The notes under the pieces were generated by a model. That model saw only the letters and a list, made by a program, of their open reading frames with translations. It made no database searches and had not been told where the DNA came from. Positions 1-35,446 of a stretch of DNA of 43,456 bases are shown here, one piece after another (positions within the stretch are counted from its first letter, which is position 1; the number at the start of each line of letters is the position of its first letter). Both the position numbers and the translations under genes were made by a program. The stretch comes from Lachnospiraceae bacterium (GTDB lineage: Bacteria; Bacillota; Clostridia; Lachnospirales; Lachnospiraceae): the NCBI GenBank assembly GCA_016282595.1, contig JAEEKV010000011.1:1-43456 (forward strand). Reading direction: 5' to 3'.

Positions 1-1323
1 AAACAGGATGCTGGTCTTTGCCCCGGAGAGCTTAAAGACCATGGAACCGTCATTTAAGATGTTATCGGAATTTGCCACCACCTCGGGATTGCAGGTATGC
101 AGCACCTTCATGGTAAGGCCGCAGATCGAAAGCTCCTGTCCCTGAGACAGATAGGTGACGTTGTCTCTTTTTTCCAGATTTCCCAAAAGGTAATGAACGG
201 CATCGGTGCGAAGTCCCTGTTTATCAACCGCATCGAAATCCCATTCTCCCAGATAGATCTGTCCGATCTCAATTTCGCTCTTATCCCATTCCGCTTCCAA
301 AACAGATGCCAAAACTCCTGCATGGTCATCATGGGGATGGGTGATGATCCAGGCATCCACCCGTCCTCCCAGCTTTTTAATGGTATCCACCAGTTCCACA
401 GACTGCCAGGCTCGTCCCCCATCTACTACGATCAGGGATCCGTCATCCCCTGCCAGAGTATAGCTCATGCAGTTGTAATCCTCCGGATCCGGATAGTGTC
501 TTAAGGTAAAAAGGTTAGCGGGGACATACTTATATACCTTATAGTTTCCGCTTTGGCCAATCTCTTCAAAGTGATAGCGTCTGGTATTTCCCACTAGCTC
601 CTGCCAGTCTCCAAGCACCAGATAGGTAAAGCCGAACTTCTTCATTTTCCGGGCCAGCTTTTTCACGGAGATCCTGTCGTTTGACTGGGATACCAGCTCA
701 GCAATCCTCCTGTAGCGGGAGCCCACTGCAGATCCAAACCCGTTTCTCACATACCAAAGATCCACGTCTGCATTGTACATGCGGACATCCTCGCATAGCG
801 GCTCCGTAATGACGGCACGGGGGCGTTTTTCATCCTCCAGGCCTCTGTTGGGTATCACCTCTTCAGTTTCTCCCAGCCCCTCAAAGTCCCGCATGATAAT
901 ATCGGAAACCGCTATTGCGTCCGATTGGATCTTGTAAATGTTTTCCGCGGGCTTATACTCGATCCCGGTAAATACGATCTTGCCGCAAAAAAGGATCAGC
1001 AGGATCTGCAGGATCAGGATAAAGGGCTTTTTCTCCGACACAATGGCCGCTGCCGCTGCAATGAGTACGGGTGTCATCAGCAGCCAGAAAAACCGCTCCA
1101 GCACATCCAGATGTCCCAGCTTCTCCAGCACCTTAATGGTGACGGGATTAAGCGCCACCAGCACCATCAAAAGGACATAGCGAAGATAGCGGCCCCTGCT
1201 GCTTTCGGATCTGTCTTTGTACAGACCGAAAAATACAAGTGCAGCCACATACAACAGCACATTGGCTCCGGTGCCCAGATATTCGGTTAGTTTTGCGTAA
1301 ACCGCCTCATAACCGCTTAGCAT
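1..1323 (-). CDS. Membrane protein with C-terminal metallo-beta-lactamase-fold domain (3' end truncated by window edge)
   Basis: Manual reverse-strand reading, open to position 1: MLSGYEAVYAKLTEYLGTGANVLLYVAALVFFGLYK..., hydrophobic segments, then ...MSYTLAGDDGSLIVVDGG...DAWIITHPHDDHAGVLASV... (HxHxDH motif). Missing from the ORF track because it has no stop inside the window. Confidence 0.8.
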   Translation of the reverse strand, partial: MLSGYEAVYAKLTEYLGTGANVLLYVAALVFFGLYKDRSESSRGRYLRYVLLMVLVALNPVTIKVLEKLGHLDVLERFFWLLMTPVLIAAAAAIVSEKKPFILILQILLILFCGKIVFTGIEYKPAENIYKIQSDAIAVSDIIMRDFEGLGETEEVIPNRGLEDEKRPRAVITEPLCEDVRMYNADVDLWYVRNGFGSAVGSRYRRIAELVSQSNDRISVKKLARKMKKFGFTYLVLGDWQELVGNTRRYHFEEIGQSGNYKVYKYVPANLFTLRHYPDPEDYNCMSYTLAGDDGSLIVVDGGRAWQSVELVDTIKKLGGRVDAWIITHPHDDHAGVLASVLEAEWDKSEIEIGQIYLGEWDFDAVDKQGLRTDAVHYLLGNLEKRDNVTYLSQGQELSICGLTMKVLHTCNPEVVANSDNILNDGSMVFKLSGAKTSILF

Positions 1324-33445: not shown

Positions 33446-34534
33446 CTAACCCTGTTGCAGATCCTTCAAAATCTGAAGGTTTCTCGTCATTCCTTCTGAA
33501 ATATCATAAAAGGGCTTCCAGCCAAGACCCCGCAGCTTGCTGCCATCCAATCTGGCCTTGGTTGCCTTGCTGTAGCCTGCGCTTTCCACATCATCCGGAA
33601 GCTCAAATACCACCTTTTTGCCCGCAAAGGAAGCGATCAGCTCTGCCAGGTCCTTTAGCGTCAGATCCGACGCGGTATCGGCAATGTTGTAGGCCTCTCC
33701 TTTTTCTCCTATCAGCAAAATCGTCAACAGTCCGCTGACAGCATCTGCTACATAAGTGTAACTATATAACTGATTGCCGGCCGATTTTAAAACGATATCC
33801 TCTCCGGCAATGCCCTTTCGGATAAACTGGCTAATGGCCTTGGTATCCGACATCAGCATGGTAGGGCCGTAAGATCTGGTTAATCTCGGGATTACGATAT
33901 CCATATCCATGGCCCGTATATAGGCCTGACACAGCGCTTCCCCACAACGCTTGCTTTCCGGATATCCGGCCCGCAGGGTGTTGCTGTCGATATAACCGCA
34001 ATAGTCCTCTGAAAAGAGTTCCACATCTCCCCGATTCTCTCCATAGATCTCATTGGAGGAAGCAAAGGCCACTCGCTTTGCACCGGCCTCCTTTGCGAAG
34101 GAAAGCATATTCTGCAGCCCGATGATGTTGGTGGTAATGGTGCCCACCGGATCCGTAGCGTATTGTACGGGATGGGTATTCGAAGCCAGATGCAATACAT
34201 AGTCGATCTTTGCATCCTGATCCATTGCCAGCGGTTCATTGATATCGTAAGGAACGAAAACCAGATTTTCGCTTTTTTCCCAATGAGAAAACCTGGAGGC
34301 CAATCTTTCCTGATTACGCCCCAGGGCATACACCTTGCAGCCAAGTCCCTCTTCATTTTTCACCATCAGAACATCGGTCAGAAAGCTTCCGATCATACCG
34401 CTTGCACCGGAGATCAGAACTCCGGCATTCTGAAGCTTTTCCCAGGGAAGGGGAAGGGTTGCGACCTTTTGCAGATCCTCTTGATACATTGTATTTTCGT
34501 ATAGATTCATATTGTTTTCTTTTTTCATATTCAT
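33446..34534 (-). CDS. NAD-dependent epimerase/dehydratase (extended SDR)
   Basis: GVLISGASGMIGSFLTDVLM (GxxGxxG), FASSNEIYGENRG, AGYPESKRCGEAL (YxxxK), SYTYVADAVSGLL. Confidence 0.85.
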   Translation of the reverse strand: MNMKKENNMNLYENTMYQEDLQKVATLPLPWEKLQNAGVLISGASGMIGSFLTDVLMVKNEEGLGCKVYALGRNQERLASRFSHWEKSENLVFVPYDINEPLAMDQDAKIDYVLHLASNTHPVQYATDPVGTITTNIIGLQNMLSFAKEAGAKRVAFASSNEIYGENRGDVELFSEDYCGYIDSNTLRAGYPESKRCGEALCQAYIRAMDMDIVIPRLTRSYGPTMLMSDTKAISQFIRKGIAGEDIVLKSAGNQLYSYTYVADAVSGLLTILLIGEKGEAYNIADTASDLTLKDLAELIASFAGKKVVFELPDDVESAGYSKATKARLDGSKLRGLGWKPFYDISEGMTRNLQILKDLQQG

Positions 34535-34540
34535 GCGATA

Positions 34541-34721
34541 GATTCACAGATACTTCCCCGACCTCTTCGAAAACCCGGTGCAAGCACCTCAATCGCTGCT
34601 ATCGCAGCTGTTTTCTCAGGGTTCGGTGAAATACCTGCTTCGCAGGTACGCTCTGCATCATCATGCGCGGTATTTCGTGCAAGCACGATACCCCGCTGAT
34701 GATACAGCGTATCTGTGAATC
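34541..34721 (-). repeat. Structured intergenic element bounded by 13-bp perfect inverted repeats with internal hairpins (MITE-like or structured RNA)
   Basis: GATTCACAGATAC (34541-34553) vs GTATCTGTGAATC (34709-34721); TACCTGC-TTC-GCAGGTA (34632-34648); GCTGC-TATC-GCAGC (34595-34608); GGTGC-AA-GCACC (34577-34588) enclosed by GAAAAC...GTTTTC (34569-34615); long imperfect hairpin 34653-34706. Confidence 0.75.
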
Positions 34722-34729
34722 GTAACATT

Positions 34730-35446
34730 TTACTTCAACCAGTTATCCTTATCCGATTTCAAGTAAGCTTTGAACATCTCCAGATCGTCCTTGGTGGTGA
34801 GCTTAATGTTCTTATCGGATCCGGCAGCAAAATACAGCCTTTCTCCCAATTCCACCATCATGGTATTGGTATAGGCTGAGCCGTAGATACCGATCTCTTT
34901 TTCGTATGCCTCATGATAAGCGCTATCCACCTTGCCAAACCTGTAGGCCTGGGGGGTAGATACCCTGCGCAAAGTTTCACGGGGAATGTATTTGACGGTG
35001 CTGATCTCATCATCCACCAAAAAGATCTGCTCATTGTAGGGAAGGGAAGTGACCGCATTCCCATACTGGGCGCATTTTACGATGACATCGGAAAGCACGG
35101 TTTCATCCACCAAAGGTCTGATTCCATCGTGAATGATGATGATATCATCCTCCGATGCTTTTCCCTCCAGATTGTAGATGCCGTTGCGGATGGACTCCTG
35201 GGCGGTATTCCCACCGGAGACGATCCATTTTAACTTATCGATATTAAACTGCTTGGCATAGGCCCAGACAATGTCGTGCCAGCCTTCCAGCGTTACAACC
35301 TCTATGGCGTCGATCTGGGGATGCTTCTGAAAGCCCTCCAGGGTGTAGATCAAAACAGGCTTGTCATACACATTGATGAACTGCTTGGGAATATCCTGTC
35401 CCATCCGCTGCCCGCTTCCGCTGGCAATGATCACTGCTATATTCAT
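34730..35446 (-). CDS. IspD/TarI family cytidylyltransferase
   Basis: [51 protein letters not shown]...[17 protein letters not shown]...[20 protein letters not shown]. Confidence 0.9.

What the first reader, a model, noticed from the sequence alone, without database searches (positions are those of the whole stretch)
34541..34721. Multi-hairpin element bounded by 13-bp perfect inverted repeats inside an operon
The only large non-coding spacer in the gmd-tarI-SDR run is a palindromic element: GATTCACAGATAC...GTATCTGTGAATC at the ends, and inside it a 7-bp TTC-loop hairpin, a GAAAAC/GTTTTC pair enclosing two hairpins, and a long imperfect hairpin (CTGCATCATCATGCGCGGTATTTCGTGC / GCACGATACCCCGCTGATGATACAG). 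It ends immediately before the SDR start codon (34534) and begins right after the cytidylyltransferase stop codon end (34730). It could be a MITE/ERIC-like dispersed element or a structured cis-RNA tuning SDR translation. Only one copy was noticed in this window.
Basis: seen in the sequence. Interest (0 to 1): 0.72.

Follow-up and report, generated by a model that had tools for sequence, protein, structure and literature searches.

The report
Mobile element carrying a conserved RNA fold
The palindromic spacer is one of dozens of copies of a small jumping DNA element in this bacterium; it carries the same folded-RNA design as a catalogued but unexplained RNA family (Clostridiales-1), which indicates that this RNA family spreads by transposition.

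Summary
It is not unique. A model of its core finds 22 sites in the window's own genome, sites in all 7 genus genomes and in 28 of 200 Lachnospiraceae genera. In 79 copies, 94% of cells pair and all 26 pairs show two-sided compensatory changes. The window copy matches Rfam RF01699 (Clostridiales-1, no known function) end to end, but below its cut-off, so it is a sister type. It shares the closing helix, the CUUG-capped helix and the GAG/CGA helix, and lacks the last hairpin. It is absent from the orthologous cytidylyltransferase-SDR junctions examined and present only in the window's genome and its nearest relative, so it is an insertion, not a conserved SDR leader. Recent copies in other genera have inverted ends GTTACTATTCACAG/GTAACTATTCAGCC and exact 8-bp target duplications; canonical RF01699 copies have different ends and 5-bp duplications. 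Best reading: a non-autonomous transposon (MITE) with a conserved structured core, probably moved by an IS66/ISBst12-like transposase, left as a structured spacer in an operon. The effect on neighbouring genes and the transposase itself are not shown.

The parts
34541..34721 (-). whole folded element (type B, sister of RF01699); structured strand = gene strand
34709..34721 (-). P1 closing helix, 5' arm (GATTCACAGATAC on the minus strand)
34541..34553 (-). P1 closing helix, 3' arm (GTATCTGTGAATC on the minus strand)
34722..34726 (-). GTTAC, conserved outermost part of the 5' terminal inverted repeat (TTAC kept in about 29 of 32 alignable left ends); its counterpart at the other end of the window copy has decayed
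34653..34707 (-). P2, long imperfect hairpin capped by G(CTTG)C, shared with RF01699
34632..34648 (-). P2b hairpin TACCTGC-GAA-GCAGGTA, characteristic of type B
34554..34631 (-). P3 arm: outer helix, GAG/CGA internal loop, inner helix (GAAAAC/GTTTTC) enclosing two hairpins
34615..34618 (-). TGAG strand of the tandem G-A internal loop
34566..34569 (-). CGAA strand of the tandem G-A internal loop
34595..34608 (-). inner hairpin GCTGC-GATA-GCAGC
34577..34588 (-). inner hairpin GGTG-CTTG-CACC
34730..35446 (-). upstream gene, IspD/TarI-type cytidylyltransferase (PF01128)
33446..34534 (-). downstream gene, NAD-dependent epimerase/SDR (PF01370); the ancestral start is probably Met9 at 34510

Best explanation
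The spacer is a non-autonomous, MITE-type transposable element with a conserved multi-helix core, of a type closely related to Rfam RF01699 (Clostridiales-1). SHOWN: it is one of many dispersed copies that share architecture and ends; recent relatives in other genera carry exact 8-bp target duplications; the window site is empty in the other species examined; base pairing is kept by compensatory change. INFERRED: a transposase acting in trans, with IS66/ISBst12-like end specificity, moved it into the 10-20 bp junction between the cytidylyltransferase and SDR genes in the common ancestor of the window's species and its closest relative. It is now transcribed with the operon and folds in the mRNA. 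The closing helix P1 brings the upstream stop codon and the downstream start region close together. The most likely effect is that of a REP/BIME-like structured spacer: it tolerates transcription (no terminator was found on the gene strand), may stabilise the upstream message and may dampen or uncouple SDR translation. The conserved core is presumably kept because it makes insertions tolerable, or because a host or transposon factor binds it.
For: Copies: 22 core matches in the own genome, 5-22 in every genus genome, 28 of 200 other genera, none elsewhere in the window. Covariation: 79 copies, 94.3% of cells paired (shuffled 63.9%), 26/26 pairs with two-sided change, 603 double-change cells against 164 in shuffles and 46-86 when slid. 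Family link: RF01699 matches the window copy end to end (1-166) at 31.1 bits, E 4.6e-5 on 461 bp; at least four other own-genome loci are hit by both RF01699 and the window-type model. Mobility: 6 of 9 recent type-B copies with both ends recognisable have 8/8 target duplications, a seventh 7/8; none of 72 mismatched left-right pairs reaches 7. RF01699-type copies in G068 show 5-6 bp duplications in 16 of 17, and in 5 of 6 further genera. Window-site insertion: the gene junction is tight in the orthologous loci, the element only in G000 and G001. Ends: GTAACTATTCAGCC and 8-bp duplications resemble ISDge4 of the IS66/ISBst12 group (TIRs GTAACTGCTCAGCA/GTGACTACTCAGCA, 8-bp repeat; PMC12898284). 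No promoter, and no terminator on the gene strand, within the element.
Against: The window copy itself has no recognisable target duplication, and its right-hand GTAAC is gone. Two apparently empty sites keep GTTAC at the junction, so it is not certain in every case that GTTAC belongs to the element. The effect on the mRNA is inference only.
Confidence: 0.8

Rival explanations
1. A cis-regulatory RNA (riboswitch-like leader) that controls SDR translation.
For: Very stable fold directly upstream of the SDR gene and co-directional with it; structure retained in G001 (98% identical).
Against: Absent upstream of SDR orthologues, where the two genes abut; the same architecture lies next to many unrelated genes.
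Confidence: 0.05
2. A family of host-beneficial RNAs (independent small RNAs or processed intercistronic RNAs) that was dispersed by transposition in the past and is now domesticated in this genus.
For: Rfam lists RF01699 as an sRNA gene; strong covariation among old copies; several sites are occupied in different species of the genus (gmk upstream region in G000, G001 and G006); old copies sit in co-directional operon junctions more often than opposed ones (20 '++' against 9 '--'), whereas recent copies elsewhere show no bias.
Against: The orientation bias is weak (p 0.03 on one side only); some copies are lost or partly deleted between close species; no promoter is seen at the window copy.
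Confidence: 0.25
3. The fold acts as single-stranded DNA or a cruciform (REP/HUH or hairpin-recognition transposition), not as RNA.
For: G-T pairs are rare: 55 of 2000 cells, against 30 A-C. The GNA-type hairpin loops such as GCGAAGC are very stable in DNA (general knowledge). TTAC 5' of the insertion recalls IS608 targets (general knowledge).
Against: 8-bp and 5-bp target duplications argue against HUH-type transposition, which leaves none. IS200-type TnpA is absent from three genus genomes that hold many copies. Conserved G-A internal-loop and CUUG loop motifs, and the G-T excess over A-C, point to the gene strand. Close orthologous pairs differ mostly by one-sided G-U changes.
Confidence: 0.15
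4. A plain chance palindrome or an ordinary transcription terminator.
For: None beyond hairpins in a spacer.
Against: z -9.3, many homologous copies, no U-run terminator on the gene strand.
Confidence: 0.01

Closest known systems
Clostridiales-1 RNA (Rfam RF01699; Weinberg et al. 2010, PMC2864571)
   Same: Same closing helix, long CUUG-capped second helix and helix with the GAG/CGA internal loop; same host group; same strand; full-length model match.
   Different: Scores 31.1 bits against a gathering score of 48; lacks the 3' hairpin (GGAUUGCGGGAG...), has an extra GAA-loop hairpin and two hairpins inside P3; different transposon ends and target-duplication length (8 bp against 5 bp).
MITEs of bacteria (e.g. 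QMITE2 of Coxiella; review PMC10969869)
   Same: Short, no ORF, terminal inverted repeats, target duplications on recent copies, intergenic, stable transcript fold.
   Different: In a MITE the inside is usually a decayed remnant; here an elaborate inner fold is conserved by compensatory change across genera and occurs with at least two unrelated sets of ends.
IS66 family, ISBst12 group (ISDge4, PMC12898284)
   Same: GTAACT..TCAGC-like terminal repeats and 8-bp target duplication.
   Different: ISDge4 carries a 449-aa transposase; no such gene was found with these elements.
REP/BIME elements and REPINs
   Same: Dispersed palindromic repeats at gene ends and between operon genes.
   Different: Much larger (about 180 bp), with TIRs and target duplications, not tied to a RAYT transposase.
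IStrons (group I intron plus IS, PMC4227781)
   Same: A structured RNA joined to transposon ends.
   Different: No known ribozyme or splicing; non-autonomous and only about 180 nt.

Membership tests
Rfam RF01699 Clostridiales-1 | score at or above the curated gathering threshold (48 bits) | tested here: not met
   31.1 bits, E 4.6e-5 on 461 bp and 0.0044 on the window; other type-B copies 23-38 bits
Rfam RF01699 Clostridiales-1 | P1 closing helix, P2 with CUUG loop, P3 with GAG/CGA loop | tested here: met
   folds and alignments
Rfam RF01699 Clostridiales-1 | terminal P4 hairpin GGAUUGCGGGAG...CGGAGCAAUCC | tested here: not met
   absent from the window and type-B folds
MITE | dispersed multi-copy, short, non-coding | tested here: met
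MITE | terminal inverted repeats shared between copies | tested here: met
   GTTAC[GT]ATTCACAG ends
MITE | target-site duplication | tested here: met
   8 bp in recent type-B relatives; not seen at the window copy itself
MITE | autonomous parent element with the same ends | tested here: inconclusive
   no partner in the loci inspected; no whole-genome IS66 search was possible
IS66/ISBst12-derived | 8-bp target duplication and GTAA-type ends | tested here: met
   searches compared with PMC12898284; many copies begin GTTA rather than GTAA
IS66/ISBst12-derived | transposase homology or mobilisation by an IS66 transposase | not tested
IS21-derived (G068 type A) | IstB in the same genome | tested here: not met
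   no PF01695 match in G068
IS200/IS605 or REP/RAYT (HUH) | no target duplication; TnpA/RAYT present | tested here: not met
   target duplications present; TnpA absent from G001, G002 and G005
SDR cis-regulatory RNA | conserved upstream of orthologous SDR genes | tested here: not met

The most novel reading that the evidence does not exclude
One structured RNA module (the Clostridiales-1/type-B core) is a conserved functional part of a superfamily of mobile elements and has been combined with at least two unrelated sets of transposon ends (TGAT...GGGTCAAAAG with 5-bp duplications; GTTAC/GTAAC...TTCA with 8-bp duplications). The RNA would then be a selected cargo, for example an RNA that makes insertions into operons harmless or recruits a host factor, as a group I intron does in IStrons.
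Probability: 0.35. Interest if true: 0.75.

Novelty: new variant of a known kind. Interest (0 to 1): 0.57.

Why it matters
Clostridiales-1 has stood in Rfam since 2010 as an sRNA candidate without function, and the library search here found no later paper that analyses it. The target duplications show that members of the family move by DNA transposition. The strong compensatory evolution shows that the fold is nevertheless maintained. That turns 'what does this RNA do' into a testable question about mobile elements (does the fold help insertion, tolerance or mRNA stability?), and it warns that such orphan RNA families near genes should not be read as gene-specific regulators. The sister type in this window is below Rfam's cut-off, so databases would miss it.

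Tried and rejected
IS21 as the partner of the 5-bp-duplication type: no IstB in G068. IS200/IS605 (HUH) insertion 3' of TTAC: first suggested by the conserved left TTAC, rejected because recent copies have 8-bp duplications and TnpA is missing from several genomes. Autonomous copies beside the TIRs: 13 regions of G068, 20 regions of G006/G003/G000 and 396 kb of G111 held no transposase between matching ends. Pattern scans of viral contigs for the TIRs gave a capped list of 14-mer matches that were not examined, and three matches to the TGAT end without a usable partner. No copy of a G186 element in plasmids. Template-switch perfection of palindromes as the source of the compensation: considered because G-T pairs are rare, judged less likely because close orthologous pairs show one-sided G-U changes. 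A tRNA control for the G-T frequency failed for lack of tRNAs in the loci. Exact empty sites in the genus: several aligned junctions were too diverged or were deletion remnants; the cleanest, L278 against G003, breaks exactly at the GTTAC end.

Full report
OBSERVATION. The spacer at 34541-34721 is as described: 13-bp perfect inverted repeats enclose a long imperfect hairpin, a GAA-loop hairpin and a third arm with two inner hairpins. In gene orientation the RNA folds to -95.9 kcal/mol, z -9.3 against dinucleotide shuffles. Flanking genes are an IspD-type cytidylyltransferase and an NAD-dependent epimerase.

IT IS ONE OF MANY. A DNA search of the own genome found a second, 74% identical copy. 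Rfam RF01699, Clostridiales-1, matches the window copy over its full 166 positions at 31.1 bits (gathering 48), on the gene strand. RF01699 itself is dispersed: 22 matches (E up to 1) in the own genome, and matches in 37 of 98 related genomes, reaching at least 25 in some. I aligned seven window-like cores (13 of 26 pairs with double changes) and built model R1. R1 finds 22 sites in the own genome, 5-22 in each of the seven genus genomes and matches in 28 of 200 genomes, each of a different genus. Some sites are hit by both models (own-genome contigs C29, C80, C165, C266), linking the two types.

ANATOMY. Both types have P1 (closing helix, sequence differing between copies), P2 (long, capped by G(CUUG)C) and P3 with a GAG/CGA internal loop that can form two adjacent G-A pairs. 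Type A (canonical RF01699) then has P4; type B (the window) has a GAA-loop hairpin after P2 and two hairpins inside P3. Across 79 type-B cores 94.3% of cells pair, every pair shows two-sided change, and 603 double-change cells compare with 164 in shuffles and at most 86 when partners are slid. The alignment was fitted to the model, which favours the structure, but the slid controls use the same alignment. G-T pairs are rare (55 of 2000) though more frequent than A-C (30).

IT IS AN INSERTION. In the orthologous loci compared, the cytidylyltransferase and SDR genes abut or have short unrelated spacers; the element is present only in G000 and G001, where it is 98% identical. The N-terminal MNMKKENN of the window SDR is therefore probably not ancestral.

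IT BELONGS TO A TRANSPOSING FAMILY. In G068, 185-bp RF01699 units are near-identical and flanked by 5-6 bp direct repeats in 16 of 17 cases; 14 are exact 5-bp repeats against 7 of 272 mismatched pairs. Five of six further genera agree. The ends are TGATRYCAGGGTCAAAAG. Type-B copies of the window's genus are old; their left ends keep GTTAC[GT]ATTCACAG (TTAC in about 29 of 32), their right ends less so. In genera with recent type-B copies the same kind of ends are flanked by exact 8-bp repeats in 6 of 9 copies, and a seventh has 7 of 8; none of 72 mismatched pairs reaches 7; by eye one further copy (L346, CCTATTGT) is also exact. In G111, 63-bp and 157-bp elements share these ends. The 8-bp length and GTAACTATTCAGCC ends match the ISBst12 group of IS66 as described for ISDge4 (PMC12898284). 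This is a resemblance of ends; no transposase was found.

POSITION. Where the gene on the 5' side runs in the same direction, the element starts within about 10 nt of its stop codon in most cases. Old genus copies are more often co-directional with both neighbours (20) than opposed to both (9); recent copies in G068 and other genera show no bias. This fits random insertion followed by some selection, or tolerance, in the sense orientation.

MECHANISM. Shown: dispersal, shared ends, target duplications in relatives, structural conservation, lineage-specific presence at the window site. Inferred: trans-mobilisation by an IS66-like transposase, co-transcription with the operon, and a REP-like effect on mRNA stability or coupling. 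The gene-strand scan shows no promoter or terminator, so transcription probably passes through.

COMPARISON AND NOVELTY. It is filed as a MITE by anatomy and as a sister type of RF01699, not as a member, because the Rfam threshold and the P4 hairpin are not met. The known part is that bacterial MITEs exist and can fold (PMC10969869) and that RF01699 is a structured RNA candidate (PMC2864571). New here, as far as the library shows, are the target duplications of RF01699-type elements, the sister type B, and the use of two different sets of ends with one RNA core.

Noticed in passing
G000:C132:4649-4966 (L252); G003:C187 (L285); G000:C80 (L259): Tandem repeats of the P3 plus P1-3'-arm module (period about 112-122 bp), so that one 5' arm faces several alternative 3' arms. 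Similar P4 plus P1' duplications follow many type-A copies (L019, L095, L099, L023).
   Followed up: partly
L504:1970-2033 (G111:C2): A 63-bp element with the GTAACTATTCAGCC ends but no room for the RNA core: minimal derivatives of the same ends exist.
   Followed up: no
window 33446-34534: The SDR start annotated at 34534 adds eight residues that orthologues lack; Met9 at 34510 is the likely ancestral start, with only a weak ribosome-binding site left.
   Followed up: partly
L270 (G006:C383): A type-B copy sits just downstream of what looks like a T-box leader (GGGTGGCACCGC followed by a terminator-like hairpin).
   Followed up: no
L293, L296 (G004:C67, G004:C76): Two 260-aa Y1-transposase-like proteins of RAYT type in a genus member, without adjacent repeats of this family.
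   Followed up: no
L251, L264, L279 (upstream of gmk): The same intergenic site upstream of guanylate kinase holds a type-B element in three genus genomes, one with P2 deleted.
   Followed up: partly
window 1075-1187: A weak isrA-like match (24.2 bits, gathering 51, E 0.27), most likely chance.
   Followed up: no
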